DNA from: a virus
Strand: one strand, 5' to 3'
IMG/VR virus record: IMGVR_UViG_3300046780_000058
Span: 1 to 46,132 of that record
DNA length: 46,132 bases
A model generated the notes under the pieces. It saw only the letters and a program-made list of their open reading frames with translations. It had not been told where the DNA came from and searched no databases. The position numbers and the translations under genes were made by a program. Positions 31 through 46,132 of the stretch are shown here, in pieces. Each line of letters opens with the position of its first letter. Position 1 is the stretch's first letter.

Positions 31-103
31 GTATTGAGAGTAGTGTTCTTTTATTTTTTTTTTTTTTTTTTTTTACTATATAATATTATCCCCCTACACC
101 ATA

Positions 104-121
104 TGTCCTAATAAGGGGACA
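104..121. repeat. Hairpin B of the dyad
   Basis: TGTCC (104-108) and GGACA (117-121) form an 18-nt inverted repeat with loop TAATAAGG. It has the same stem as hairpin A (13-30) and is placed symmetrically around the poly-T axis, which suggests two copies of one binding or cleavage site. Confidence 0.75.
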
Positions 122-207
122 GGATATACTGGTATATAGCGAGCCGGGAGAGAGGGTAGGGTATGCCTAAGTCCTTTATCCACCGCGCTTTAGCGGAAAT
201 CGGCGGG

Positions 208-17847: not shown

Positions 17848-20097
17848 TTAGTGTGGCCTCTGTTTCTTGTATTCCTGAACACCCATACCAAGTGTAGCGA
17901 GAGGGGCTATAACCGCGTCTTTGGGTTGTAGTCCTTCTTCGTTTATTAGGTCATACATATCTTGCATTAGCAATGGAATGAATCTCTGAGCGAGAGAATT
18001 CTCCATTGGATTCATTGTCTTAAAGTTCATCTTCTCACCAGATAGTTCCCGCTGATTCCGCATCATTAACTGCCACGCGAAACCCAATACAGGATTAGCC
18101 TTACCTACAGCAAATCTTTCCGCAACATCGGCAGGTTCAGATTGCCCATAACCCGGATTAGATAAGCTGTATTTACGCTGTGTATTAGTTGATTTGAATC
18201 TGCCACCAAACTTAATACCCAGCTTGTCGAGGGCAGGCATTAGACGTTCAGCAGCTACAATATACTGTTGGAAACCAGCATAAGGGTCAAGTCTAGTCTG
18301 TCCTAATTGTATCTTACCAAAGTCAGAACTAGATGGGTCAGTCTCTACTTTACCACCTGCCATCTTACCAAGTGTAGTAACAGTAGCTCCTAATCCTGCA
18401 ATAGCAAAGAGAGACTTTAATGCCTCTTTTCTAGCAGGAGCAGGTAATGCCCAATAGTATTGGGGATTCAACATCTGAATACGTGAAGCTATCAGACGTG
18501 GTGAGAACAGAGCAGTAGCTAGAATGTTAGACGCAGGTTCAAGTTTACCTAATGAACCACGGCCAGTAGATGTGTTGACGAATTCCGCGAAAGCATTGGC
18601 TAGTGGTTTGTTTACCTTACCATCCTGACCAATTACTTTCGAATCCTCGATTAATGACTTAAATGTGTCAGCTCTCAACTTGTTCAGGAAAGCAGTATAT
18701 GCACGGTTAGACCTACGCACACCGGGAACCTTCTCAGCCCACGATGATTTGAAAGCTTCTTCTCGTGCAGACATACTATTCAAGTCAGTAAATTTCAATC
18801 CAGCTTCTTCCGCCATCGATGGCTTGATATTACCCTTAGCATCAATATTCTTCTTGAACATTGGTTCTTTGGTAATATCTTCCATAATAGCATTGTAGGC
18901 TCCCTCAGAACCCCATGCTTTGAACATATCATCTAGTGATGACCAGAATTCCTTTTTGTGAATTAGTCCCACACCCTGACGTAATGGAGCACTAAAGTCC
19001 ATAGATGCCATCAGAGTGCGTGGAGCATTGAGAGCTTCCATTAACTTGTTAGTTTTATATTCAGGTGCAGTATATTCCTTAACAGCAGGTGATTCTTTCA
19101 CCTTTTCAATAATGATATTTCCACGCGCATCCATATCCTTATAGTTGTAACCAAGCGCGATAAAATCATCCATCTTCTTACGATTGATTTCACCGGGCTT
19201 TAGTGTGAATTCAGTCCCCATAGGAGCAGCACGATACTTAGCATGGGGGTCCACGAAGTTAGCATCTTTAGCAGCTTGTGCAGCCGTTTTAGCTGCATTT
19301 TCTGCATTAATAGTATTAGCTGCTGTAGTGGAACTTTTACCCACTCTAGTAGCACCTGCAACTTCAGGAGATACAGGTGGTATAGCAGCACCCATACCAG
19401 TAGGTTTAGCATTAGGTGGTTTTACACCAAATTCAATATTAGGGTCTATTCTTTCAGGAACTTTAGGTGCATCGCTCAAACCACTTGCACCCATAGCTAT
19501 TTCGACTAAGCCCTGTCCTCTTTCACCCCATGTTGAATTGGGGTTAATTACTTTCATTGCACCAGATGGTATCTGTGCAGCATTAGCTAAATTGCCAGCA
19601 GCAGTTAAGCCTTTAGCAATAGTAGGTAGTCCAGCCTTCGCAGCCATACTAGACCCACCACTCGCCAACATACCAGCGAGATTAATGGGCGAAGTAAAAC
19701 CACTCATTAAGTCACCAATACCTTGAGTAACACCACCAGCAAATCCCTCTACTTGTGCAGCAAAAGGACTTCTATCAAGAGATGGGGAATCAATAGAATC
19801 TGCTACTTTACCAGCCACTTCTGACGGTAATGTAGTCAATGGTTTATTAGCAGCATCCCATACTTTACGTAAAGTTCCCCTAGTATCAACAGGGGGTTTA
19901 GGCGGTGGTGCTACAGGAGCCGCCGGTGGAGGTGGCGCAGCTTTAGTATCAGTAGGAGGTGCTGCATCAGCAGGCATAAGTTCTACCTTATTCTCTTTTG
20001 CAGCAGCTTCTACCTGTTCATCCGTAGGGGGATTATCTCCCTCGAAATCGAGAGTTCCCCCGCCCTTTAAGTTAAATTGAAACTTCTTCTGAGGCAT
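17848..20097 (-). CDS. Large virion-associated protein, probable ejection protein
   Basis: 749 residues, last gene of the minus arm. N-terminus FQFNLKGGGTLDFEG, Pro/Ala linker (about 50-70), then a Gly/Ala-rich segment whose residues 96-144 resemble the 130-aa product of the next gene upstream. The C-terminal half (APRTLMASMDFSAPLRQGVGL onward, then a hydrophobic SLFAIAGLGATVTTLG stretch) resembles large polyvalent-protein-associated domains of phages, which travel in the virion. No catalytic motif visible. It may act in genome ejection or host control on entry. Confidence 0.75.
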   Translation of the reverse strand: MPQKKFQFNLKGGGTLDFEGDNPPTDEQVEAAAKENKVELMPADAAPPTDTKAAPPPPAAPVAPPPKPPVDTRGTLRKVWDAANKPLTTLPSEVAGKVADSIDSPSLDRSPFAAQVEGFAGGVTQGIGDLMSGFTSPINLAGMLASGGSSMAAKAGLPTIAKGLTAAGNLANAAQIPSGAMKVINPNSTWGERGQGLVEIAMGASGLSDAPKVPERIDPNIEFGVKPPNAKPTGMGAAIPPVSPEVAGATRVGKSSTTAANTINAENAAKTAAQAAKDANFVDPHAKYRAAPMGTEFTLKPGEINRKKMDDFIALGYNYKDMDARGNIIIEKVKESPAVKEYTAPEYKTNKLMEALNAPRTLMASMDFSAPLRQGVGLIHKKEFWSSLDDMFKAWGSEGAYNAIMEDITKEPMFKKNIDAKGNIKPSMAEEAGLKFTDLNSMSAREEAFKSSWAEKVPGVRRSNRAYTAFLNKLRADTFKSLIEDSKVIGQDGKVNKPLANAFAEFVNTSTGRGSLGKLEPASNILATALFSPRLIASRIQMLNPQYYWALPAPARKEALKSLFAIAGLGATVTTLGKMAGGKVETDPSSSDFGKIQLGQTRLDPYAGFQQYIVAAERLMPALDKLGIKFGGRFKSTNTQRKYSLSNPGYGQSEPADVAERFAVGKANPVLGFAWQLMMRNQRELSGEKMNFKTMNPMENSLAQRFIPLLMQDMYDLINEEGLQPKDAVIAPLATLGMGVQEYKKQRPH

Positions 20098-20489
20098 TAT
20101 CTCAATCCACTAGCCATTCCAGCTGCAATTTGTGCAAGACCTAATGGCTTATTAGATTTACGCATTTTATCCACACCCCCTGCCATAGCTACTAAACCGG
20201 GAATCCGTGACCCTGTTGAAAGCATAGCAAGATTAGCAGGAGAAGTCATTTCAGATGCTACATTACCTGCACCCTCTGTCATACCTGCAAGTAAGCCCAT
20301 TAACTTAGCTTGAAATGGACTTCTATTTACTGATGGTTGGTCAATCTTATCAGCTAACACCTTTCCATAGTGAGCAGGAGCATTAATCATAGGTTGTAAT
20401 AGTTGGTCCATAATATCAGGATTTTTAACCATACCCTGAGGTTCTGGGTCCATCTTGTCCAGTATTTTAGGACGTAAGAATGGTGGCAT
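20097..20489 (-). CDS. Small Ala/Gly-rich protein, paralogue of the neighbouring large protein's N-terminal part
   Basis: 130 residues. Residues 42-90 (KVLADKIDQPSVNRSPF..., GMTEGAGN, TSPANLAML) align by eye with residues 96-144 of the 749-aa protein (KVADSIDSPSLDRSPF..., GVTQGIGD, TSPINLAGML). The rest is Ala/Gly-rich and mildly hydrophobic. The stop overlaps the next start (TAATG). Likely an ejection-module protein that arose by tandem duplication. Confidence 0.7.
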   Translation of the reverse strand: MPPFLRPKILDKMDPEPQGMVKNPDIMDQLLQPMINAPAHYGKVLADKIDQPSVNRSPFQAKLMGLLAGMTEGAGNVASEMTSPANLAMLSTGSRIPGLVAMAGGVDKMRKSNKPLGLAQIAAGMASGLR

Positions 20490-22655: not shown

Positions 22656-24014
22656 CTATCCAAAATAAGCTGCTGATGTTGCCCCACCACCGCCACCTGT
22701 ATCTTGATGTTGAACAGCACCAACATCCAAAAATCCAACTGTTAGTCCAGTGAGGAATGTGCCGGGAAATCCTAATCCTCTTAAGGCTGCACCAGCACTA
22801 GCAGTGTTATTTAGAGCGAAATTTCCGGAAGCAGCATTAACGAAAAAGCTAGCTGTTCCAGTAATAAATCCAATATTTTGAACCTGTTTACCAGTTCCAA
22901 TAGTAACGTTAGTTCCAGCACTAAATCCAGCGCAGTTATACATGAGAATAAGGTTATTATTACCAGATGCATTAAATCCAACACCTGTATTAGATTCAGC
23001 AATACAATTAATATAGGTCATTCCGACTTGTCCCATTCGGAATCCATCCCTAGTATTACCATATGAAGTGCAATTACTTAAAGTAGTCGTGCCAGAACAA
23101 TTAAATCCATCCTGACCATTACTATAAGCAATACATTCAGTTGCAACAGTATTTGCGGCACAAGTAAATCCATCAGTGCCATTATTATTTGATACACAAG
23201 CAACTACGCCACATTGACCAATAGCTGTAAATCCTGCATTAGTATTATTGTGTGACCAACAAGCGATGAAAGCACCACCATTAGTTCCACCTGAAAATGC
23301 AGTTGTTACGCAATTTTTAACTTCACACGCATAACAACGATTAATACCAGTTCCAGAAATACTAATTCCTCTAGCAGTAGTTTGACTATTTCCATCTACA
23401 ATTATATTTTGAACGAATCCGGCAGCAGTAAGAGTTATAGCAAAAATTGTAACACTGCCTACTGACCATTGTAAAGTAGGAGGAGATGTGAAGTCAGTGC
23501 GCGAGGTATTGTATCCGAGAACTTGGAAACCACCACTCATGGCTCCATTAGATACATTGGCAGTAGAAACAGTCATAACATAGGTTCCAGTCTTGATATA
23601 AATAGTAACACCAGATACGCCACCTGCCGCACCACCAGCCATACCGGGAGATGCTAATGCACCACCAATATTCATTGTGATGGTATTTCCAGCAGCAACA
23701 GACCTATCTAATACTACCTGAGTAGCACTAGTTCGTGTAACTACCTGATACCAACCAGCAGCTAGACTTCCAGTTCCACCTTGCAAATAAATGATATTAC
23801 CAATAATTAATGTGCTAAATGCAGCACCAGCTGATGTAATAGTAGTTGAACCAGTAGCTACAACGTCAGTAGTAGAATTATCATTAGCTAATCCTGTATT
23901 TTTTGCATTTTGCTGTGAATAATCAGTTCCAGCAATACCGGTGACAAAACCACCGCCATTAGTGTCAGCACCAGCACTTCTTACTTCGAATACGGATGCA
24001 GCAGAAATTGCCAT
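22656..24014 (-). CDS. Parallel beta-helix tail spike
   Basis: 452 residues. Residues about 215-380 form repeated rungs of 20-25 residues with the motif S-N-N/G-x-D-G-F and a ladder of Cys (CVSNNNGTDGF, CIAYSNGQDGF, CTSYGNTRDGF, CIAESNTGVGF), the hallmark of right-handed beta-helix proteins of the pectate-lyase/spike type. The N-terminal FEVRSAGADTNGGGFVTGI is the usual cap motif of such phage proteins. Probably receptor binding or polysaccharide degradation; no catalytic residues can be named with confidence. Confidence 0.8.
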   Translation of the reverse strand: MAISAASVFEVRSAGADTNGGGFVTGIAGTDYSQQNAKNTGLANDNSTTDVVATGSTTITSAGAAFSTLIIGNIIYLQGGTGSLAAGWYQVVTRTSATQVVLDRSVAAGNTITMNIGGALASPGMAGGAAGGVSGVTIYIKTGTYVMTVSTANVSNGAMSGGFQVLGYNTSRTDFTSPPTLQWSVGSVTIFAITLTAAGFVQNIIVDGNSQTTARGISISGTGINRCYACEVKNCVTTAFSGGTNGGAFIACWSHNNTNAGFTAIGQCGVVACVSNNNGTDGFTCAANTVATECIAYSNGQDGFNCSGTTTLSNCTSYGNTRDGFRMGQVGMTYINCIAESNTGVGFNASGNNNLILMYNCAGFSAGTNVTIGTGKQVQNIGFITGTASFFVNAASGNFALNNTASAGAALRGLGFPGTFLTGLTVGFLDVGAVQHQDTGGGGGATSAAYFG

Positions 24015-24742
24015 TACTGGTTCACCTGCACAACAATTTCTAAAGCAACCTTTGTAAGCGTTGTTACAGAGTTAATGTTAAATCCAAGCACATTTCCAGC
24101 AGGAATGGTAGTTGTTAACCATGCTGTAATTGCTGATGTTCCGCTTGAATTTGTAGCAGTAATCTTAGGAGGTGCAGCAGAAACAATTGTATCGGCAACA
24201 GTTGGAGGAAAATTCGCGTATGTATCTGACCATACGTCAATTTCTACAGCACCAGTATTACCATCCAAAGCTAGAACAGTCCAACTAAGAGCGGTAACTG
24301 GAACGGGAATCTGTAAGTATGTTTTAGCACCTACAGTGAGAACAGAACCCCCACCATCGAATACAACAGTGATAGTCCTAGTTCTAATTAAATCTCTAGA
24401 CTGTATTACAGGAACAACATCATCAGTCCAGAAATCATCTGGAACTGCCATTGGTCCCACCGGGCCAGCAACACCAGTCGCTCCAGTATTACCGGGTGGG
24501 CCAGTAGGACCGACTACTAAGAAGGGGTCGCCATCTTCACCATCTTGTGCTAACCCTGCTGGACCCTGAGCACCTGCCGCGCCTGTGCTACCAGCCGGAC
24601 CAACTAATGTATGAACTACACCAACATCATCTTTATATGCTGGCGCACTTATATCAATTGAGAAATAGATAGTTACCTTCCCGGCAGCGGGAGTAGGTAT
24701 ATCAGCATTTAACGATTCTAAAAGTGTTAAACCACCGGGCAT
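24014..24742 (-). CDS. Collagen-like tail fibre protein
   Basis: 242 residues. Two Gly-X-Y tracts near residues 50-100 (GPAGSTGAAGAQGPAG and GPTGPPGNTGATGVAGPVGP) flanked by a short N-terminal domain and a beta-rich C-terminal domain of about 140 residues. The order fits a trimeric fibre with a head domain. Start and stop overlap neighbours (TAATG type). Confidence 0.8.
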   Translation of the reverse strand: MPGGLTLLESLNADIPTPAAGKVTIYFSIDISAPAYKDDVGVVHTLVGPAGSTGAAGAQGPAGLAQDGEDGDPFLVVGPTGPPGNTGATGVAGPVGPMAVPDDFWTDDVVPVIQSRDLIRTRTITVVFDGGGSVLTVGAKTYLQIPVPVTALSWTVLALDGNTGAVEIDVWSDTYANFPPTVADTIVSAAPPKITATNSSGTSAITAWLTTTIPAGNVLGFNINSVTTLTKVALEIVVQVNQ

Positions 24743-25161
24743 CAGTCTACCTCAATGAGAAAACCTTCAATGTCCAGAATACCTTCATTATCTATATTCA
24801 TAGAAAATAAGGCTTGCTTAAAAAGGGGAATAGTGAATGTTTCAGTAGTAGCAATAAAGTATGGCACCATACCATTGGCACCATCAGTTCCATTTGCACC
24901 AGCAGCACCAGCAGGACCGGGTGGACCTGATTCACTACTTCCACCACCACCATCATCTCCTAGTGTAGCAAATCCTAGAAGATTGATTACTGTGTTTCCA
25001 CCACCGCTAGTATTATCAATTACAAGACCACCGACTTCTTTGTTCAATGCTTCCAGAACACCCAACATCTGGTATAGCAACTGCCAAAGAGGGTTGTCCT
25101 TGTTCTGAAGTCCAGTATTCTGTAACTGGTATTTCAGGCGCGAAGCATCGATTAAACTCAC
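24742..25161 (-). CDS. Short collagen-like fibre protein
   Basis: 139 residues. N-terminal helical part with possible coiled coil (LLYQMLGVLEALNKEVGG), a Gly-X-Y tract GPPGPAGAAGANGTDGANG, then a beta-like C-terminus. Overlaps its neighbours by one and four bases. Probably a second fibre component that joins the longer collagen-like protein. Confidence 0.75.
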   Translation of the reverse strand: MSLIDASRLKYQLQNTGLQNKDNPLWQLLYQMLGVLEALNKEVGGLVIDNTSGGGNTVINLLGFATLGDDGGGGSSESGPPGPAGAAGANGTDGANGMVPYFIATTETFTIPLFKQALFSMNIDNEGILDIEGFLIEVD

Positions 25162-32823: not shown

Positions 32824-34215
32824 TTAGTCGTCACCCTGCATCAGGAATTCAAGTGAGGACATTCCTTTCGGAATTTCCTTAGAATTGCCACTAGACTTGC
32901 TGGAGCGTGGCCTCTCATCGTCGTCAGATTTAGAACGTCGTTGGCCCTTGTTATCACGGGCTTTAGTGTCATCGTCCTTATCTTCTCTTACTCGCTTACC
33001 GATACCGCGCAAGGCTTCATTACGGGACTTTTTAATGACTGAGTCCAACAGTGTTTTCGACTTGCTCATGTATGCGGAGCGAATTGAATCAACACTAGAC
33101 CTTGAGAAATTTGCCTTGTAAGCATTTTCCCAAAGCTTATTCACAATAGTTTTGAATCTTACATCTTTATCAATGAGTGATTCTACTTCTTCCATAGCGT
33201 TACGAATGGCGCTACGTTTAACATAGTCACTCATTGCATCCTTAGGGTCAATATTCTGTTCGATAACAGACTTAATGGAATTATTAACCCTAGTATTGAG
33301 TTCACCACGCGCTTCTTCAAATCGTTCCTTGATGAGCGCCTGATTTCTAGCACGAAGTTGTGTCTTTTCCTCATCTTCTACTTCCGGCTTTTCATTTCTA
33401 GCCAGAGTAGAAGGAGGTTCAAACTCATTGGATGCAAACACAAATTGATTGAGAATTTGTGCTGCCGTCGTCAAAGCTTCATTACCAGTGCCCTTACCAT
33501 TGCGAACCATCGCCATGATAGTCTGCTTGATAACGTTGCCAACAACATGAGTATGAGCGTCATTATCAACCTTCGCAAGCGTAGGAAGATAATTGTCTAC
33601 AAGTTTTGCGAACGCTTTGGGCGTTGTTTCTTTAACAGTTCTAAGAACGACCTCGGTGTTACCAGAGAGAATGTCATTCTCAAACTGGTCAAGCGTCTGG
33701 GCCTTCTCATAAGCCTGTTTTGCATCAGTAGGATGTGAGAATATTTCTGTGAACTGTTGCTCACGAAAGTATGCCTTTTCGAGATAAGGGAAGTCCTTAA
33801 ATATGTTTGGATATTTCTTGAGTATTCGCGCACGCGAAACTGGAGTTACTAATTCCAGCTTTTCTTCAGTAGGTTCTTCTAATGATTCTTCTAATTCGTC
33901 GAGGTCAATTTCCTCGTCGTCATCATCATCTTCCGACTTTTCATCATCGTCGTCGTCAGATTTAGATTCCTTCTCCTTCTTATCTTTATCTTTTGCCTTA
34001 TCTTTTGGTTTGGGCTTATCGTCATCTTCATCTTTGCCCAAATCATCAGACTTGTCGTCATCAGCACCCTTTTTATCTCCCTTATCGTCATCATCAGTGT
34101 TAAGGTAATCCAGAATGTCATCTTTCGACATTTCACTAGACATACCACTACCACTAGCGGCATCTGATATGGGAGCGTAGAAAGGTTGCCAGTTATTACT
34201 GAACCGTTTGAACAT
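32824..34215 (-). CDS. Scaffold-like head protein with long acidic/lysine tract
   Basis: 463 residues between portal and capsid genes. Residues about 30-120 form a low-complexity tract alternating Asp/Glu runs and Lys clusters (for example DDDKSDDLGKDEDDDKPK). The remainder is helical, and the C-terminus is polar (RSKSDDDERPRSSKSSGNS). This is the usual composition of internal scaffold proteins that fill the procapsid. Overlaps the portal gene by 20 bases. Confidence 0.7.
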   Translation of the reverse strand: MFKRFSNNWQPFYAPISDAASGSGMSSEMSKDDILDYLNTDDDDKGDKKGADDDKSDDLGKDEDDDKPKPKDKAKDKDKKEKESKSDDDDDEKSEDDDDDEEIDLDELEESLEEPTEEKLELVTPVSRARILKKYPNIFKDFPYLEKAYFREQQFTEIFSHPTDAKQAYEKAQTLDQFENDILSGNTEVVLRTVKETTPKAFAKLVDNYLPTLAKVDNDAHTHVVGNVIKQTIMAMVRNGKGTGNEALTTAAQILNQFVFASNEFEPPSTLARNEKPEVEDEEKTQLRARNQALIKERFEEARGELNTRVNNSIKSVIEQNIDPKDAMSDYVKRSAIRNAMEEVESLIDKDVRFKTIVNKLWENAYKANFSRSSVDSIRSAYMSKSKTLLDSVIKKSRNEALRGIGKRVREDKDDDTKARDNKGQRRSKSDDDERPRSSKSSGNSKEIPKGMSSLEFLMQGDD

Positions 34216-36655
34216 CTTTATTCTCCGTTATGGGTGCTTCTTTTGCTGTTCTAGGATTGGGCTTCTTAGGCGGAGCGCCACCATTTCCACCCTGAGCCGC
34301 TAATTGTTGTTGCTGTTGCTGCATCATTTGCATTTCCATTGCATCTTTTGCAGCCTTACCATATAACAAGACATTCTGATAACCGGGTTCATTCAGAACT
34401 TTTGTCTGTCTGCCAGCATCAGAAATAACCCATTTACGAACAGTTTCAAATAGAATCTGAAGATTGTCGAAATCAGGGTCAATATCTACTGACGCAATCA
34501 TTGGAAGCATTGGGTCGCCAGTAGGAATAGGTGTGCTCTTGAGAAGAATCTTGATATTCTCATAGCACTTAATTACATCATCTTCACCGGGAACATAGAA
34601 ATCAACTAATCCTAATGCCTCATGAACAATCGAAAGATTTTCAGGAGCCATCAGAATTTGCTGAATCATTGGATTCTGATTAGTCATAAGCTGCATGAGA
34701 AGGTCTTTCTTCTGACCCCATGTTAATGGAAGATTCTCATTAGCTTCTAATTCAACCTTGCCAATCTTACCTTCTAAATCGGCTTTGTGAATGAAAGTAT
34801 TGATAAAGTTTCCATCGTCAGTTCGTTGAACATCACGTTCATCATATTGAACTTCTTTAATATACATTGGAATAACTTTCATGAAAACGTTCTTCCAAGT
34901 CATAGTAAAGAGTTTCCAAGTATTCTGAAGCCGCTGTAATGCTTGTGCGCGACTCATTGAATATTCAGATGCTGTTTCAGAGCCTTCTAATTGACCACCA
35001 AAGATTGATGGTAACGCACCAGAAGCCATCTGACCAGCAGATTGAATTTGACCATAGAACGGCATTACTTCGCTGCTTAACGTAGCAGTGCGAAGCTCCA
35101 TGAATCCGTCGTTAAGTGATTTACCAGATTTTGGAATAGCCGGAAAGATTCCACCGGGTGTAACTTCAGTCTGCTCGTAAGCACTGAAATTTAATACGCC
35201 GGGGTCAGCAAATGTCTGACCGATACCATGTTCGATTGTCTGAAGAATCAGACTAATCATATCATTGGTAATTTCCTGAACACTTACAAGTGACTGCCCT
35301 AATGGAGCGAAATGTAAGTAATCAGACATTGGATTCTCAGTGAGCGTCCAATGGTCATCTAATGACTGATTGTAAGCTTCGCAAAATTCATCATTTGCAT
35401 AAGCTACACACGCGCCATTAGGATATAACTTTTTCAGCTTCTTTGCATCATCTTCATTTAAGAAGTTGAATGAACAAGGGCGAAGCCATGCCTTATTAAC
35501 TGTGATAACATTTACAGGATATTCACCCTGATACTGTGGTGAGAGTCTAGCCCACTGTTCATACTGATTGTATGCTCCAGCTTGCTCACTTCCACCAGAT
35601 TTCAAATTCTTGAGAAGATTTTTATTTCCATGCAGATGTTCATATTGCTCAACTACTTGAGTGTAATTCTTTTCCTCACTTAAAATTAAGTAGGGAATAT
35701 CACACTGCTTCTTAGCATAGTTAGGAATCTTAATATTCAGACCACCATATGCTTCAATGCAAATGTGAGTCTTAGGTTCATCAGTAATCTTATCTAAACG
35801 AGTGACAACGAATTTATCCCGTCGAATTTCAGGGTCCATCATTGCCATACAGGACGGGCAGAGTTCCTGTCCTTCAAGTAAAGAATATTGTAATGGTGCA
35901 TCTTCATTATCAGGATTAAATTCATCTTTCTCCTGATTCTGCATCATTTCAGCATCGCTCTTACTAAATTGAGGCTGCTGTTGTTGCATACCCATATTCT
36001 GCATACCTGATTGGTCAGGCGGCATCATTTGAGGATTAGGCTGACCCCCCATATTAGCAGGCTCAGGCTGACCAGTAGCAGGAATACGAGAAAGCTCATA
36101 ACCACAGCTTGAGCATGTTGTTACTTCTTCTTCTTCCTCGTTTTCTGAATATTCCTTATTCTTGTATGTTCCATATTTTTCATCAGTATCTGAATAATTA
36201 TAGAATCCCACACAACCTTCCGTAGCGAATACGAAAAGCGCGTGAAGCCATTTTAATGGAGCATCATTATGACGATACACTAATTGAGCAATCTTATCTC
36301 CTGTTCTAGCAGTTGATAAGTCCAGTGTATCATCAGCGTCATCCGGAAAGCACTTAATCGGCGGAACAGTGACAGAGAGTGCCGCAATGATTGATTCCAG
36401 ATAAGCTTTGAATACGTTAATAGGCTTATCGTATGCAGCTTGGTCTGTTCCCTCATCAGCGTTGAGTTCATCCCAAACACGCCAATCATGCGCAACTTCA
36501 CTATACCAAATCTGGGAATAACCTTCCCACATTAGCTTTAATCTGCGCCACTGTCGTAACTGTCGCTGACGCACAGAGTCATCCTCGTGCATACAGCGTT
36601 CAAACACTGTTTTGAGGAGTCTCTGTATTTCGTCAGACGTTTGTCGTTTTGCCAT
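34196..36655 (-). CDS. Portal protein with zinc-ribbon insertion
   Basis: 819 residues. Portal-like features: helical N-terminus, AAYDKPINVFKAYLESIIAAL (given as residues 73-93), a central beta/helix core and a Gln-rich C-terminal tail (MMQQQQQQLAAQGG). Length and gene order (before scaffold and capsid) fit a P22-like portal. Residues 181-184 (CSSC) and 266-269 (CPSC) form a zinc-ribbon pair separated by a Met/Gln/Pro-rich insert of about 80 residues, not normal for portals. Start overlaps the upstream stop (TAATG). Confidence 0.8.
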   Translation of the reverse strand: MAKRQTSDEIQRLLKTVFERCMHEDDSVRQRQLRQWRRLKLMWEGYSQIWYSEVAHDWRVWDELNADEGTDQAAYDKPINVFKAYLESIIAALSVTVPPIKCFPDDADDTLDLSTARTGDKIAQLVYRHNDAPLKWLHALFVFATEGCVGFYNYSDTDEKYGTYKNKEYSENEEEEEVTTCSSCGYELSRIPATGQPEPANMGGQPNPQMMPPDQSGMQNMGMQQQQPQFSKSDAEMMQNQEKDEFNPDNEDAPLQYSLLEGQELCPSCMAMMDPEIRRDKFVVTRLDKITDEPKTHICIEAYGGLNIKIPNYAKKQCDIPYLILSEEKNYTQVVEQYEHLHGNKNLLKNLKSGGSEQAGAYNQYEQWARLSPQYQGEYPVNVITVNKAWLRPCSFNFLNEDDAKKLKKLYPNGACVAYANDEFCEAYNQSLDDHWTLTENPMSDYLHFAPLGQSLVSVQEITNDMISLILQTIEHGIGQTFADPGVLNFSAYEQTEVTPGGIFPAIPKSGKSLNDGFMELRTATLSSEVMPFYGQIQSAGQMASGALPSIFGGQLEGSETASEYSMSRAQALQRLQNTWKLFTMTWKNVFMKVIPMYIKEVQYDERDVQRTDDGNFINTFIHKADLEGKIGKVELEANENLPLTWGQKKDLLMQLMTNQNPMIQQILMAPENLSIVHEALGLVDFYVPGEDDVIKCYENIKILLKSTPIPTGDPMLPMIASVDIDPDFDNLQILFETVRKWVISDAGRQTKVLNEPGYQNVLLYGKAAKDAMEMQMMQQQQQQLAAQGGNGGAPPKKPNPRTAKEAPITENKDVQTVQ

Positions 36656-39600
36656 TATTTATCCCAATACTCCGCAATGTCGTCTGGTAGATTAACAAGC
36701 TTCTTGTGTTGAGCATCGGTGAATAAGTTTTGCATATCATAATCGCCCGGATAACGTTCCTGAGCATACCCCTTGTAATAGTCCATAAGTTTAGAACCTT
36801 CGTCCTTAATCTCATGTGCCTGAGCAACTGCATGAGATTTACCTGAAGTCATCATATCCCGTAATTGAGGATAGACTAAATCATGAACTCCAAATTTAGC
36901 ATTTGGATTATAATCTGGTGAAAGAACCTCATTCTGCCAATGCTTGAATGATTGACCTTTATCAACAGGAACCATAATACCACCGGGGTTCTTAACAAAG
37001 TTCCCAATGTGTGTATCGTGATTTCCAATCATCCAATCAACAGGATGCTGTGTTGCTAAATCAGCACGCTGTAAACCAGAAAGGTCAGAAAGACTATTGA
37101 CAGTGCTTGCACCCTCAATATATTTCTGTAAGGTGCCCTTTCCCATGCCGGGGATATTAACCCGCTCAGCAACAGGAGTTCCACCAAACATATTAGCAAT
37201 CTTACTACCGTATTCTTCGCCCAACGAATTGAGCGGCCCACTGTATCCTTCTTTCTTGAATACGTGAGGCACACCACCGTAGTTCCACAATTGTGCATCG
37301 TGGATACCACCTAAATTTTTGACGAACTCTACATCTTTCGGAATGTAGATGTGTGGAGACTTTCCACTCTTAACTAATTCAGACCCTACTAATTTCTTAG
37401 ATGGGTCTTGTCCTGCTGCTTGTTCTTGAGCATCTTTGTATGCAGCATCCCATTCCTCAGGAGACATACTTGAATCTTCTTTGGGAATCTCATATGCTGC
37501 ATTAGAAGGATGCTGAGTATCAACTTCCCACGGCATAGGAGGTTCCGGCTCTGTCGGACCTTCATACCACGGTGGGTCAGTTAAACTAGGTTTAGGTTCA
37601 GTAAATTCAGTAGGATGGTCCCATGCTAATGGTTTGGATTCAACACTATTTGCAAACTTCTCTAATTCAGGAGTCCATCCTGTAGGATTTGTAGGTTTGT
37701 TAACAGTATAACCACCCCAATGTTCGGGATAGTCTTTAATCATATCTGATAATGCTTTAGGTTCGATTCCTGCGTTCTTAGCAAATTCTGTAAAATCATT
37801 TCCCTTTGTATAGGGAGTATCAATTGTATGACCAGTAAAATCATAATCTTCAGGTGTTGCTGCTTTATAGGGTTTTTGTTCTGATTGAATATCAAATGGT
37901 TTAGTGTGACCAAACTTATTTTCAAAATCATTAACAGTTATTTTACCAGACTTAACAGCATTAGTAGCTTCTGATTCAGTTAAGTATTCGCCATTGAAAT
38001 TATAGATAGGTTCATTTGCAGGAGTTTTACCCGCATCATATGCCGGGTCATATGCACTCTCAGCTTTCCTAGTAGTCTCAGTAGGATGCTGTTGCCATCC
38101 TAATGCGGAAGTTTTTTCTCCTTCAGGCACATAGTCAGCAAAGTTATGACCTGATGTAATTAGTTTCTCTAAATCTGCTTTTTGGTCATGAGAATTATAT
38201 TTATAATTATAATATTCTCCATTAGGAGTCGTCATTCCAAAAGAATCACCCGGCTCAAAAGCTGAATCAATATAATCCTTATTAGTAAACTTAGAATCGC
38301 CATATGGCTTATTCTGTAATGGGTCCAGTTTAGCAGCCGCTTCCTTTAATTTAGTTGCAGTATTCTTATAGCCTTTATCAATCTTAAAAGTAGTTGATTG
38401 AGTTTCAGCATGTTCTAAATCGTCTACGAATTGGTCAATACCATTTTCTCCATAGACATTTCCATAGTTACCTTTCTTAAAAGTATCTTCAACAGACAGA
38501 CCTTTACCAAATGGAGAATCAATCTTCCAATTGGCGTATCCTTTTGGTTTAACTTCTTTAGTGACAGGCGTTCCATTTACATGGGTAACTTCACCCCCTG
38601 CTCCATGCATTAAATCATCATTAATATTCTTTGCATGTAATGCATCAGATATTGGTTGATAGGTATAAGTGCCGGGATTTCCATCTGCTCCCTCGTTCCA
38701 TTTAACAGAGAGCTTATCACCAACTTTATATTTCTGACCTTTAATAGTAAAAGCATTTTTATCAATAGGCTTTTGTAATCCCCCATAGTATTTAGTAGCT
38801 GACATTTCACCAGCTGAATAGAATTGATTAGCTTCCTTCTCAGTTAAATGTCCAAAGTCAGGACCATAATCAAAATGCTGTTCGTCAGGAAAATCTAATC
38901 CTGTATATTCTTTAGGAATAGGATTATCATTTATATGAGTTAATTTATGAGTCCCCTTATCAAATTTACTTTCAAAAAATTCTTTAGTTTTCGGACCAGC
39001 AATTGACGCAGTATAAGTTTCACCATCTGCATTTGTATATTTAATTGTATCACCAATATCAAATGATGATTTTGGTTTAACATCAGTAATTTTAGTTCCA
39101 GCACCAAACATTCCCTTAGCAGGAGGTTCAGCAGAACCAACGATACTAGGAATCTTGCCGGAATCCAAGTAATTCTGGAGTTCCATCATATCCGTAGTAT
39201 TATTAATAGATACTGTATATTTTCCATTAGTTCCATCTAACATTAATTTCTTTCCATTATAATAATTAGCATCATTAACACCAGAAGATTTTTTCATTAG
39301 TGGTGTTTTACCACTCATCTTATCAATATTTTCTTGAATCTTAGCATCAAGTTTAGCTTGCATAGCTTTACCTGATGTAGTATTTTGGAATCCAGATTTA
39401 GTAGTCGGTGGTGTCATACCACGCTTAAAATAATCAGGTTCAGCACGTAAATCCTGTGAAGGTAATCTTCGCAGATTCGTAAGTTCTGGAAGCGCGTCAG
39501 GATTACCTTTATAATCGTCCGGTAGTCTCGTAACCTTGAGCGGAGTTCCCTCCGTCATGGGAGCCTGACCGTATAAACTCTTTATTTCTGCATCACGATG

Positions 39601-40500
39601 TATTGGGAATGTTTCATGTCCCATATCCTGAACGCGAGCAGCATCAAATGTGCCACCCATTTTCTTCATAGAACTTTCAGATGCATTTAATCCAGTGTAA
39701 ATATCTCTCAATTGACTCGCCAATTGTTCTTGGCGGTCCGTTGGAGACATATGCTTATTATAGCGCCAGTTCTTAATAGCCTGTTCCCTATGACCGGGGT
39801 CCAGCATTTGAACAGCTTGAGCTAAATCATTAGTATCATAATCTGGACCTTGTAAATCCAGAACATTTTTAATAGTTTTTGGGTCGAGTGCAACAATATT
39901 TGGAGATTCTTCCATATTCTTTGCTCCAAATGCATATGAGTTAGCATAACTTAATGCACCGGGGTCATGCTTATTTGTAGTATGGAACATACGTCCCAAT
40001 AAATCATTGGATGATAATTTATCAAAATCAATTAAACCAGTTAATTCACCTTTAGAATTCTTGAAAGCTCTCGGTGCTCCATGAACTACAGCTTTCTGTT
40101 CACCTTTAGCACCTTTTAACCAAGCAGCTAATGGTAATCCAGCTTCTAATGCTTTCATACCACCCATCTTAACTAAAGGCGCGCCCGTATCTATCATTTG
40201 GGCAGCAGCATTAGTATAGAATTCTGCTTTATCTTCAGTTGTAGCAGTTCCCTCTCTAATTCTTTCTGCTATACCTTCAAAATCTGAAGGGTCAAGTCCA
40301 AGAGTTCCTCTAGCAGCGCCCATCAAACCACCAAATCCTGCACGAGCAGTTTTTTTCCAATCAGGGTCATGGCTCTGTGCTTGACGCACAATGCTATCAA
40401 TGACTTTCTGTTGGTCTGCCGTCGGAGCTTTACCAGAAGGTGGGGGAGTAACTAATCCCAACTTCTTTAATAGCTCAAATGATGGTGAAAGGTCAGGCAT
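36655..40500 (-). CDS. Polyvalent-type protein: ART-like N-terminus, repeated middle, PI3K/HipA-like kinase C-terminus
   Basis: 1281 residues beside the portal gene. Residues about 137-320 resemble the ADP-ribosyltransferase fold of polyvalent proteins: VVHGAP (H140-G141), GRMFHTT (169-175), SYANSYAFGA. Residues about 415-800 hold beta repeats (THINDNPIPKE 521-531 and THVNGTPVTKE 639-649 among them). Residues about 1050-1250 carry a kinase-like core: HVFKKE (Lys near 1082), GNHDTHIGN (1159-1167, D1162 and N1167) and VPVDKGQSF (D1180), the catalytic and metal sites of PI3K/HipA-like kinases. Likely packaged and injected to modify host proteins; activity is inferred. Confidence 0.75.
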   Translation of the reverse strand: MPDLSPSFELLKKLGLVTPPPSGKAPTADQQKVIDSIVRQAQSHDPDWKKTARAGFGGLMGAARGTLGLDPSDFEGIAERIREGTATTEDKAEFYTNAAAQMIDTGAPLVKMGGMKALEAGLPLAAWLKGAKGEQKAVVHGAPRAFKNSKGELTGLIDFDKLSSNDLLGRMFHTTNKHDPGALSYANSYAFGAKNMEESPNIVALDPKTIKNVLDLQGPDYDTNDLAQAVQMLDPGHREQAIKNWRYNKHMSPTDRQEQLASQLRDIYTGLNASESSMKKMGGTFDAARVQDMGHETFPIHRDAEIKSLYGQAPMTEGTPLKVTRLPDDYKGNPDALPELTNLRRLPSQDLRAEPDYFKRGMTPPTTKSGFQNTTSGKAMQAKLDAKIQENIDKMSGKTPLMKKSSGVNDANYYNGKKLMLDGTNGKYTVSINNTTDMMELQNYLDSGKIPSIVGSAEPPAKGMFGAGTKITDVKPKSSFDIGDTIKYTNADGETYTASIAGPKTKEFFESKFDKGTHKLTHINDNPIPKEYTGLDFPDEQHFDYGPDFGHLTEKEANQFYSAGEMSATKYYGGLQKPIDKNAFTIKGQKYKVGDKLSVKWNEGADGNPGTYTYQPISDALHAKNINDDLMHGAGGEVTHVNGTPVTKEVKPKGYANWKIDSPFGKGLSVEDTFKKGNYGNVYGENGIDQFVDDLEHAETQSTTFKIDKGYKNTATKLKEAAAKLDPLQNKPYGDSKFTNKDYIDSAFEPGDSFGMTTPNGEYYNYKYNSHDQKADLEKLITSGHNFADYVPEGEKTSALGWQQHPTETTRKAESAYDPAYDAGKTPANEPIYNFNGEYLTESEATNAVKSGKITVNDFENKFGHTKPFDIQSEQKPYKAATPEDYDFTGHTIDTPYTKGNDFTEFAKNAGIEPKALSDMIKDYPEHWGGYTVNKPTNPTGWTPELEKFANSVESKPLAWDHPTEFTEPKPSLTDPPWYEGPTEPEPPMPWEVDTQHPSNAAYEIPKEDSSMSPEEWDAAYKDAQEQAAGQDPSKKLVGSELVKSGKSPHIYIPKDVEFVKNLGGIHDAQLWNYGGVPHVFKKEGYSGPLNSLGEEYGSKIANMFGGTPVAERVNIPGMGKGTLQKYIEGASTVNSLSDLSGLQRADLATQHPVDWMIGNHDTHIGNFVKNPGGIMVPVDKGQSFKHWQNEVLSPDYNPNAKFGVHDLVYPQLRDMMTSGKSHAVAQAHEIKDEGSKLMDYYKGYAQERYPGDYDMQNLFTDAQHKKLVNLPDDIAEYWDK

Positions 40501-40644
40501 TTACTTCTTCTTATTCTTCTTCATCATTTCCATAAGGGCAGACTTCTTGTTACCACCCTTATTACCACCCTTGAAATCTTTCTTGGGTAGTGCTTTACTA
40601 AACTTCTTCATGAAATCAGATGACGGACTAATGTCCAGTGGCAT
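40501..40644 (-). CDS. Small lysine-rich protein, 47 aa
   Basis: ATG at 40644; stop TAA at 40501-40503 directly precedes the ATG of the 1281-aa gene. MPLDISPSSDFMKKFSKALP then KGGNKGGNKKSA and a Lys/Met tail. Overlaps the upstream gene by 17 bases. Very basic, so possibly DNA- or capsid-interior-binding. Not recognised. Confidence 0.65.
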   Translation of the reverse strand: MPLDISPSSDFMKKFSKALPKKDFKGGNKGGNKKSALMEMMKKNKKK

Positions 40645-41089
40645 TTCTAACTCCTGATTGTGCTGTTCGTTCATCTGCTGCTACATCTAATTCTAACTCT
40701 AATTCAGCAGTTAGATTACTATCAACTTCAGTTGAAGCAGTATTCGGGAGCTTAGTTTCATCTGGAACAGGCTTCTTATTCTCTAATTCCTGTTCTCTCA
40801 GAATAGCAGCTCTACGTCTATCTTCAGTTTCCATCATTTGCCTACGCACATTGAATGGAAGATGACGAGATGGAGTAATTGGTTTCAGTGCAGACATATC
40901 AATCTTCTGTTCTACAATAGGTTTAGTAGTAATATTCTTGAGAAGTTCATGATTAAGTTCATGAGCCTTCGCCAATTCAATTTGTAAGTTTTCACAAGAC
41001 CTACAAACTGCTTTCTCGCGCTCCATTTCAAACTTAGCTCGTTTGTAAGTGTAGCGAATTTCAAGTAGTTCATTCAGCCAGTTAAACAT
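40628..41089 (-). CDS. Coiled-coil protein, 153 aa
   Basis: Residues 8-55 have heptad-like Leu/Ile/Lys/Glu spacing (coiled coil) and a CRSC pair; the second half is polar with Glu-rich LTAELELELDVAADE. It begins one base after the terminase stop. Perhaps a terminase or portal accessory factor; no family recognised. Confidence 0.65.
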   Translation of the reverse strand: MFNWLNELLEIRYTYKRAKFEMEREKAVCRSCENLQIELAKAHELNHELLKNITTKPIVEQKIDMSALKPITPSRHLPFNVRRQMMETEDRRRAAILREQELENKKPVPDETKLPNTASTEVDSNLTAELELELDVAADERTAQSGVRNATGH

Positions 41090-41090
41090 T

Positions 41091-42764
41091 CTATCTCCTA
41101 TGAAAACGTGATACCATTTTGTGTTCAGTTCCTGCTTCGATAGTTCTCATATTCCTATAGTATGCAGTCCAGTCCTGAGTGTTATTCAATTGCTGTATAA
41201 TCAGAGCCTCGCGCTGAACACGCTTAAATTCTTCTGAGGCTTCCTCGTAGTATCGTTCTGCTGTATCACAAGCATAGCGAATATCATCATATGGGTCATC
41301 CCCTTCAAATTCTGCCACATCTTCTGATGGCTTATTATTTCTAGGCTTATCGTAATTGCAAGCCTTAATAGATTGAATCATCTCAGGACAACAATCTGGA
41401 TGACCTTCAACTGGAGTTTCGAGACATTCCTTACAGCAGAATATCTGTAATCTCGGTATATCAGTTTCTTCTTCAGGTGGGTCAAACATCCTGAGATAAG
41501 ATTTATATTCTTCCATTCCTTTATTGCGCATCAACCAGAGAGCGCGTTCTTCGGAATAGGATGGCATTTCAGAATCAGGAATTACAGGCTTAGCCTTCCA
41601 TCGTAAGTATTCATGTAATAACATCTTCCCTGCTACACGCGAACCGGGAGTATTATTACTTAACTCTACTGACCGGCCTAAAGCAGTCTCAATCTGTTGT
41701 TGAATTGTATGTTCCTGTCCGCGGTCTTGACCAGCAGACTTACATACTTTAATAATCTTAGGATTCTCGTGAGTTACACTGTCTTTAATTATCGGTGCCC
41801 ATTCCTCAATCTTTGTTTTAAGGAAAGACATTTCACGATATAGATAAAGACGTTTAGTTGGTGATACTGCATAGAACCCTACGTAGGTCATTGCAGCGAA
41901 ACCCCAGTCTATAATATAAAATCTAGGCCACCAGTTTGGAATTGCAAAAGGCTCAATACAATGTAGGGCGTTATCTGGTTCATCAGGATAATGTTTATCC
42001 CGGAACTCATCGAAAACCTGCCCTAAGTATGCAGACCAATCTCCAAACTTCTTCGCCTTACGCTCTGCTTCGACTGTAATACCATCGAGCGACTGTGCGT
42101 AAGTAGGGTCAATATGTTCTTTGTTATCGTCTAGTGTTGCGTGAATGTAAATTCGTTGATTACCACCACGCCCAACGATAATCTTTCCACCCGCCGGATA
42201 TGGGTCCACAAATCTATTTTTAACGAACTTGTGACCAATACCACCCGGCATCCCTGCACTTCTAGTGATTGATGGTAATCCACTGTCTCTCGGCGCACGA
42301 TTACGCTGAAAGGTGATGTATATGTAGATGTATTCTGTAGCATTGGTTAATTCATCAGGAGTGAATAGAGATATTTCCATTGAGTCGAAATTATGAACAT
42401 CTTTCTCCTCCTCGCAATGGGATAGAAAAATCTGCGCACCTGCATTTCTTGCACCACTTCCGAATTGGTCCTCACGCGGAAACGTCCAGACCATGTCAGT
42501 TGCATTAAACGTGGCTCCGAATCTCGGATAAATCTCACGGCTACGCCCAACAATTTCCTTCTTCAAGTCAGGATATGTCCGTCGTAAGAATACCTGCTTG
42601 AATCGCGGATTTTCATGTAGTCTATGAACTATTCCATATAACAGTAATACGTCTGACTTGCCGGAACCTGCACCTCCCCCATAGAATCCCTCCTTGACAC
42701 TGAAGGGAATTGCAAGAAACTCTGCTTGCTTTCTATTGGGTTTCCAGGAGTTCCGTAGACTCAT
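41091..42764 (-). CDS. terL: Terminase large subunit
   Basis: 557 residues. ATPase: Walker A GGAGSGKS (30-37) and Walker B with ISLFTPDE (131-138). Nuclease domain: D286 (FYIIDWG) and D494 region (YDDIRYACDTAERYY) give the RNase-H-type metal sites. It packages phage DNA through the portal. Between core and C-terminus, C443, C444, C447, C458 and C459 form a Cys cluster resembling a zinc finger, an unusual insertion. Confidence 0.92.
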   Translation of the reverse strand: MSLRNSWKPNRKQAEFLAIPFSVKEGFYGGGAGSGKSDVLLLYGIVHRLHENPRFKQVFLRRTYPDLKKEIVGRSREIYPRFGATFNATDMVWTFPREDQFGSGARNAGAQIFLSHCEEEKDVHNFDSMEISLFTPDELTNATEYIYIYITFQRNRAPRDSGLPSITRSAGMPGGIGHKFVKNRFVDPYPAGGKIIVGRGGNQRIYIHATLDDNKEHIDPTYAQSLDGITVEAERKAKKFGDWSAYLGQVFDEFRDKHYPDEPDNALHCIEPFAIPNWWPRFYIIDWGFAAMTYVGFYAVSPTKRLYLYREMSFLKTKIEEWAPIIKDSVTHENPKIIKVCKSAGQDRGQEHTIQQQIETALGRSVELSNNTPGSRVAGKMLLHEYLRWKAKPVIPDSEMPSYSEERALWLMRNKGMEEYKSYLRMFDPPEEETDIPRLQIFCCKECLETPVEGHPDCCPEMIQSIKACNYDKPRNNKPSEDVAEFEGDDPYDDIRYACDTAERYYEEASEEFKRVQREALIIQQLNNTQDWTAYYRNMRTIEAGTEHKMVSRFHRR

Positions 42765-45988: not shown

Positions 45989-46132
45989 ACCAGTATTTCG
46001 TGTCCGCTGGCGTGGACAGTATTGAGAGTAGTGTTCTTTTATTTTTTTTTTTTTTTTTTTTACTATATAATATTATCCCCCTACACCATATGTCCTAATA
46101 AGGGGACAGGATATACTGGTATATAGCGAGCC
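45989..46132. repeat. Terminal direct repeat, right copy
   Basis: Repeats bases 1-145 with one T fewer in the poly-T run (T20). Everything in it is described for the left copy. A homopolymer difference of one base is within sequencing or polymerase slippage, so the two copies may be one physical locus. Confidence 0.97.

What the first reader, a model, noticed from the sequence alone, without database searches (positions are those of the whole stretch)
36655..40500. 1281-aa protein next to the portal combines ART-like and kinase-like ends with a repeat-rich middle
The N-terminal HG...GRMFHTT...YANSYAFG pattern suggests an ADP-ribosyltransferase and the C-terminal GNHDTHIGN...VPVDKG suggests a PI3K/HipA-type kinase. 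Two host-modifying enzymes in one chain, encoded in the packaging/portal block, imply delivery with the genome. Polyvalent proteins are known in phages and plasmids, but this domain pair with tandem THxN-x-x-P-x-x-KE repeats is new to me.
Basis: partly seen in the sequence, partly recalled or inferred. Interest (0 to 1): 0.8.

Follow-up and report, generated by a model that had tools for sequence, protein, structure and literature searches.

The report
Tagged phage protein with two enzymes
In a group of uncultured soil phages, a gene next to the presumed DNA-entry ring encodes one large protein with a likely ADP-ribosylating enzyme, a PI3K/HipA-like kinase and a short address tag shared with unrelated neighbouring proteins, so it is probably carried in the virus particle and put into the host cell.

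Summary
The 1281-aa ORF is real (40500..36655, minus strand), in the terminase-portal operon. The kinase reading is right: residues ~1059-1281 model confidently (pLDDT 86.8) as a PI3K/HipA-type kinase with K1082, D1162, N1167 and D1180 in place. The ADP-ribosyltransferase (ART) reading is probably right: residues 138-311 belong to a family whose other members match ART-PolyVal weakly; no usable structure model was obtained and activity is open. The 'tandem repeats' are two motif copies, not significant. The kinase+ART pairing is not unique: up to 12 of 27 related phage proteins scanned match an ART family, usually with MuF, and sequenced mycobacteriophages such as Onyinye have both. What is new is the arrangement. 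A ~110-aa leader is shared with syntenic proteins carrying other payloads (ART, HExxH zincin, unknown). It starts with a 14-residue tag that recurs at the ends of non-homologous proteins in this terminase-portal slot and almost nowhere else; the two best matches in the whole window are this protein and the 47-aa ORF directly upstream. The tag is clade-limited. Best reading: a virion-delivered bifunctional effector addressed by a cargo tag. Packaging, injection and catalysis are inferred, not shown.

The parts
36655..40500 (-). P0001, 1281-aa protein: tag + leader + ART-like domain + middle + kinase domain
   Evidence: open frame and translation; coupled to neighbours by TAAATG and TAATG
40456..40497 (-). 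N-terminal tag, residues 2-15, PDLSPSFELLKKLG
   Evidence: 16.0 bits with a matrix trained only on C-terminal tags of other slot proteins; second best of 46,644 14-mers in six frames of the window
40168..40500 (-). leader, residues 1-111, shared with slot proteins that carry different payloads
   Evidence: leader profile built without the window: domain E 1e-16 among 4,445 ORFs
39568..40089 (-). ART-PolyVal-like domain, residues 138-311 (H140; YANSYAFG 185; FDAARV 285)
   Evidence: profile of L006, L011, L189, L199 without the window: E 4.6e-12, filters off; L199 and L011 match PF18760 at 7.6e-4 and 0.011, below cut-off
37396..39483 (-). middle region, residues 340-1035, no recognised domain; no significant repeat
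   Evidence: no Pfam, PHROG or NCBIfam match; repeat test
36658..37326 (-). PI3K/HipA-fold kinase domain, residues 1059-1281 (K1082, D1162, N1167, D1180)
   Evidence: AF2 pLDDT 86.8, pTM 0.83; Foldseek and VIA matches; catalytic columns
40501..40644 (-). 47-aa tagged protein MPLDISPSSDFMKKFSK..., directly upstream of P0001
   Evidence: best tag match in the whole window, 19.3 bits; relatives also have a tagged small ORF there
40628..41089 (-). conserved ~130-150-aa protein between terminase and slot
   Evidence: one cluster of 76 members across the phage group, not tagged as a rule
41091..42764 (-). terminase large subunit
   Evidence: phrog_979 E 4.8e-30
34196..36655 (-). 819-aa protein at the portal position
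   Evidence: synteny; 429 homologues in viral contigs; no family match

Best explanation
P0001 is a bifunctional effector carried by the virion. During assembly its N-terminal tag and leader bring it to the procapsid, as the tag would for other slot products such as the 47-aa protein (inferred). It is ejected with the DNA (inferred). In the host cell the ART-like domain modifies a target with ADP-ribose from NAD+, and the C-terminal PI3K/HipA-fold domain phosphorylates a protein, lipid or small molecule; both would tilt early infection in the phage's favour (inferred; targets unknown). Shown: the open frame, operon position, leader homology, tag enrichment, kinase fold with complete catalytic residues, and membership of the N-terminal domain in a family of which two other members match ART-PolyVal weakly.
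For: Kinase: 138 viral relatives, confident model, PDB and viral fold matches to CtkA, PI4K, LepB, HipA/HipT and Onyinye ART protein, catalytic Lys/Asp/Asp invariant. ART. Same kinase domain with MuF and/or ART in other phages' large proteins beside terminase and portal. Leader with swapped payloads: 26, 66, 80. Tag: 19 of 73 slot clusters against 1 of 360 others, 67 observed against 0.29 by shuffling, matrix test, peptide-level selection, antisense control 0 of 80,557. Precedents: T4 Alt and portal/MuF-linked ARTs read as packaged (PMC5512222, PMC9503650); T4 capsid-targeting sequence (PMC9958956).
Against: No virion proteomics or activity data. The window's ART domain hits no ART model by itself and no ART fold could be modelled (7, 58, 68); the third catalytic ART residue is not identified. 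The tag is confined to one clade of the phage group (26 of 35 near loci, 4 of 34 distant ones) and 9 near loci lack it. ART+kinase on this leader is seen only in the window. The strict tag motif was noticed before it was tested.
Confidence: 0.6

Rival explanations
1. P0001 is a structural or ejection protein of the portal vertex. Its ART- and kinase-like domains are degenerate binding modules and the tag is an assembly contact with portal or scaffold.
For: Position next to the portal, tag in small basic proteins that look structural; ART catalytic residues are uncertain.
Against: Kinase catalytic residues are complete and conserved; the leader carries HExxH zincins in relatives, i.e. exchangeable enzymes; most relatives of the portal lack any ART or kinase in the slot, so these are not needed for assembly.
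Confidence: 0.2
2. P0001 is made late and acts inside the producing cell (for example on host or rival-phage functions, or as a superinfection block), and is not packaged; the tag localises it to the assembly site or is a protease or turnover signal.
For: Operon coupling only shows that it is made with late proteins; tag function is unknown; an HExxH protein often sits in the slot and could process tagged proteins.
Against: Precedents in T4 and MuF phages favour packaging; tags sit at N- or C-termini and internally, not at one cleavage position.
Confidence: 0.15
3. The N-terminal domain is not an ART; only the kinase end is an enzyme.
For: No Pfam hit for the window's own domain and no usable model; slot-ART profile against genuine ART-PolyVal proteins gives only E 0.46.
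Against: Homologues L199 and L011 match PF18760 at 7.6e-4 and 0.011 against all of Pfam with HG and YA motifs kept; window to that family E 4.6e-12; the best of 8,838 ORFs found with the profile is a genuine ART-PolyVal protein.
Confidence: 0.15

Closest known systems
Mycobacteriophage 'minor capsid and ADP-ribosyltransferase fusion' proteins and Onyinye gp16
   Same: Same kinase domain (35-46% identity over its core) in one chain with an ART, encoded beside terminase/portal; best fold match in BFVD is Onyinye gp16
   Different: There the ART is ADPrib_exo_Tox (PF03496) at the C-terminus after the kinase, and the M. abscessus prophage proteins start with VG15; here an ART-PolyVal-like domain comes first, the kinase last, and there is no MuF or VG15 match
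Polyvalent proteins (Iyer et al. 2017, PMC5512222) and MuF polymorphic toxins (PMC5576092)
   Same: Multi-domain effector in a phage late operon; variable enzymes on a conserved N-terminal part; ART-PolyVal
   Different: The kinase described for polyvalent proteins is a truncated Ser/Thr/Tyr type, here it is PI3K/HipA-type; the leader is not MuF
HipA/HipT, CtkA, LepB and PI4K kinases
   Same: Fold and catalytic Lys/Asp/Asn/Asp set
   Different: About 10-14% identity; no HipB-like partner found; embedded in a virion-operon protein
T4 capsid-targeting sequence (CTS) of internal proteins and the packaged ART Alt
   Same: Short terminal peptide shared by different virion-operon proteins; would work like a cargo address
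   Different: No sequence relation claimed; here at N- or C-terminus and shared by several unrelated families; function untested

Membership tests
PI3K/HipA-like kinase superfamily | two-lobed PI3K/HipA kinase fold | tested here: met
   model pLDDT 86.8; VIA Z 14.8 CtkA, 14.1 PI4KIIa, 13.3 LepB, 11.5 HipT
PI3K/HipA-like kinase superfamily | nucleotide-binding Lys, catalytic Asp, metal-binding Asn and Asp | tested here: met
   K1082 34/34, D1162 35/35, N1167 (N 9, Q 25 of 35), D1180 35/35
HipA_C / PI3_PI4_kinase Pfam families | score above the curated cut-off | tested here: not met
   no match in P0001; relatives match weakly below cut-off
HipA toxin of HipBA | HipA_N domain and HipB partner gene | tested here: not met
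   no such match in P0001; neighbours are late phage genes
ART-PolyVal (PF18760) | score above the curated cut-off | tested here: not met
   no match in the window; homologues L199 (20.7 bits) and L011 (16.9) stay below 31.2
ART superfamily | conserved first-motif His and the YA..Y motif of the family | tested here: met
   HG, Y-A and FDA motifs shared by the slot-ART set
ART superfamily | ART fold and third catalytic residue | tested here: inconclusive
   model of residues 1-347 failed, pLDDT 37; third catalytic residue not identified
MuF polymorphic toxin | MuF (PF04233, TIGR01641) or VG15 domain | tested here: not met
   no match in P0001, found in 16 of 27 kinase relatives
Polyvalent protein (Iyer et al. 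2017) | two or more effector domains in one chain, in a virion-gene context | tested here: met
   ART-like and kinase domains; terminase-portal slot
Polyvalent protein (Iyer et al. 2017) | delivered with the invading DNA | not testable with these tools
   needs virion proteomics
Capsid-targeting sequence (T4 CTS-like, functional analogue) | short peptide shared by unrelated virion-operon proteins | tested here: met
   19 of 73 slot clusters against 1 of 360 others; matrix test
Capsid-targeting sequence (T4 CTS-like, functional analogue) | sends attached proteins into the head | not testable with these tools
   needs a tag-GFP packaging test

The most novel reading that the evidence does not exclude
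A clade of uncultured soil phages uses one 14-residue peptide as a general virion address: unrelated proteins encoded between terminase and portal (zincins, small basic proteins, ART and ART+kinase effectors) carry it at either end and are co-packaged and injected, so payloads can be exchanged by attaching the tag.
Probability: 0.4. Interest if true: 0.8.

Novelty: new variant of a known kind. Interest (0 to 1): 0.62.

Why it matters
PI3K/HipA-like kinases recur beside ARTs in phage late-operon proteins, yet the papers read here do not describe them, so a class of probably injected host-modifying enzymes may be under-recorded. The shared peptide, if it is a packaging address, would explain how one slot swaps enzymes, would flag virion cargo from sequence alone in uncultured phages, and can be tested directly with a tag-GFP fusion.

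Tried and rejected
Single-protein scans with P0001 and with the portal found no relatives; the terminase and profiles did. Leader and ART profile scans gave only loci already found through the terminase; A8 was too divergent to scan. Structure prediction of residues 1-347 failed for lack of depth. PF18760 rang in only 2 of 398 genomes of one phylum, so no large independent ART-PolyVal set was available; the slot-ART profile against genuine members gives only E 0.46, though ranked first of 8,838 ORFs. Default HMMER filters missed the window's ART domain; it appears with filters off. Tandem repeats rejected (the first test, was flawed by overlapping segments). Literature searches for an ART plus HipA/PI3K-type kinase in virion proteins found no description, in an open-access library only. 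A scan of a more distant portal clade showed that the tag is not universal. tblastn of the portal and of the L006, L189 and L199 slot proteins against cultured phages: no match. A DNA-level origin of the tag rejected: its codons vary synonymously and the antisense control is empty.

Full report
WHAT IS THERE. The window is a 46,132-base IMG/VR virus record. The ORF is on the minus strand, 40500 to 36655, 1281 aa. In operon order come the terminase large subunit, a conserved 153-aa protein, a 47-aa ORF that the 60-aa list had missed (40644-40501), P0001, and an 819-aa protein at the portal position. P0001 starts directly after the 47-aa stop (TAAATG) and overlaps the next start (TAATG). The portal name rests on synteny, since no library family hit it.

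KINASE END. tblastn against cultured phages found only the C-terminus, in mycobacteriophage proteins, most of them annotated as minor capsid/ADP-ribosyltransferase fusions or ADP-ribosyltransferases. A profile scan found 138 relatives in viral contigs and 43 loci in genome contigs, many of them Desulfosarcina and its kin. In the 80 viral relatives traced, the domain sits within large proteins. Of 27 diverse ones, 16 match Phage_Mu_F, 2 VG15, 10 ADPrib_exo_Tox and 2 ART (these last two families may overlap in the same proteins); HipA_C and PI3_PI4_kinase match several weakly. The AlphaFold2 model on 35 sequences has pLDDT 86.8 and pTM 0.83. Foldseek returns PI4KIIIb, CtkA, LepB, PI3K and HipA with E near 1e-4 to 1e-3; VIA gives Z 14.8 for CtkA, 14.1 PI4KIIa, 13.3 LepB, 11.5 HipT and 11.4 actin-fragmin kinase. 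The best viral matches are the Onyinye ADP-ribosyltransferase (E 9.6e-9), a protein named HK97 portal protein and several PI3K-annotated phage proteins. K1082, D1162 and D1180 are invariant where aligned; N1167 is N or Q. The fold is settled; activity and substrate are not.

ART END. P0001 alone hits no ART model. Terminase- and portal-based scans brought syntenic relatives. Four of them (L006, L011, L189, L199) have a related domain with HG, a conserved His, a YA motif and, where complete, FDAIRY or FDAIKY. L199 matches ART-PolyVal at 7.6e-4 and L011 at 0.011 against all of Pfam, both under the curated cut-off. A profile of these four, without the window, finds P0001 138-311 at E 4.6e-12, with the next unrelated ORF at about 1, filters off; with default filters it was missed. 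Structure prediction failed for lack of depth. I take the domain as ART-PolyVal-like at about 0.85; catalysis is open.

LEADER AND SLOT. Residues 1-111 form a leader shared with L006, L008, L011, L013, L152 and L189 (window left out, domain E 1e-16). What follows the leader differs: ART (L006, L011, L189), HExxH zincin-like (L013, L152), unknown (L008), ART plus kinase (window). Many relatives instead have a separate 135-200-aa HExxH protein there. So the slot between terminase and portal is a place of exchangeable enzymes. None of the sampled relatives other than the window was seen to carry the kinase.

TAG. Slot proteins of unrelated families share a short peptide. The strict form [ND]T[GSA]PS occurs 67 times in slot ORFs against 0.29 expected after shuffling; 19 of 73 slot clusters have it against 1 of 360 other clusters, and none is seen in 299 kaa of ORFs of the kinase phages. 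The flanks are also conserved although they were not searched for: Ile/Val before it, basic residues at about +8 to +10, Gly at +12. Codons vary synonymously, so selection is on the peptide. A matrix trained only on 25 C-terminal tags scores the N-termini of six leader proteins at 9.8 to 17.0 bits; at 14 bits it finds 68 of 305 slot ORFs and 1 of 1,198 others. In all six frames of the window the two best of 46,644 14-mers are in the 47-aa ORF (LDISPSSDFMKKFS, 19.3 bits) and P0001 (PDLSPSFELLKKLG, 16.0); the next is 10.4. Limits: I noticed the strict motif in these loci before defining the matrix, so only the leader N-termini and the 47-aa ORF are held-out tests; and the tag is clade-limited, present in 26 of 35 near loci against 4 of 34 loci fetched with a more distant portal profile; antisense control 0 of 80,557.

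REPEATS. THxN..P..KE occurs twice (521, 639). The pair scores between the 95% point and the maximum of its shuffles, and the whole middle shows no significant repeat. That part of the finding falls.

MECHANISM. The evidence best fits a virion-borne effector: a tag and leader that bring it to the particle, and two enzymes that act on entry. Precedents are T4 Alt and the MuF-linked effectors (PMC5512222), surveys that read portal-adjacent ARTs as packaged (PMC9503650), MuF toxins (PMC5576092) and the T4 capsid-targeting sequence (PMC9958956). Every step after translation is inferred.

NOVELTY. The pair of enzymes in one chain is not new to sequence databases (Onyinye, M. abscessus prophages, MuF proteins), though I found no paper describing the PI3K/HipA-like kinase in these proteins, within an open-access library. 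New here: the domain order, the non-MuF leader with swapped payloads, and the shared tag. I file it as a new variant of a known kind; the tag, if it proves to be an address, is the more interesting part.

Noticed in passing
slot ORFs of L006-L051 and L136-L209 (e.g. L163:5490-6089, L027:3615-4016, L159:6244-6462): Peptide [IV][DN]T[GSA]PS with basic residues and Gly downstream recurs at the ends of unrelated proteins between terminase and portal.
   Followed up: yes
L007:2828-3352, L009:8961-9512, L014:8104-8628, L017:6193-6795, L024:2846-3367 and many of L136-L209: A small HExxH zincin-like protein occupies the same slot in many relatives of this phage; a metallopeptidase beside the portal could be an injected effector or a maturation protease.
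   Followed up: partly
window 17848-20097 and 20097-20489: The 749-aa and 130-aa proteins at the end of the late block share a 69-residue segment, 42% identical; possible ejection proteins.
   Followed up: no
L035:6249-6890, L039:4097-4714, L202:5531-6136: Histidine-phosphatase-like proteins (RHG motif, by eye) sit next to the terminase in some relatives, another kind of cargo in this region.
   Followed up: no
L290:2420-3598: A further slot-ART-like protein (393 aa) in a phage of the more distant portal clade, profile E 5e-8, next to a 347-aa HExxH ORF.
   Followed up: partly
window 96-145 and 46083-46132: The last 50 bases repeat exactly at 96-145, which may mean a terminal repeat or assembly overlap.
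   Followed up: no
window 24014-25161: Two tail-region proteins carry short collagen-like GPP/GxT-G stretches.
   Followed up: no
window 34196-36655 homologues: At least 429 viral contigs carry this portal-position protein, yet tblastn finds no match among 50,697 phage records: a large, apparently uncultured phage group.
   Followed up: partly
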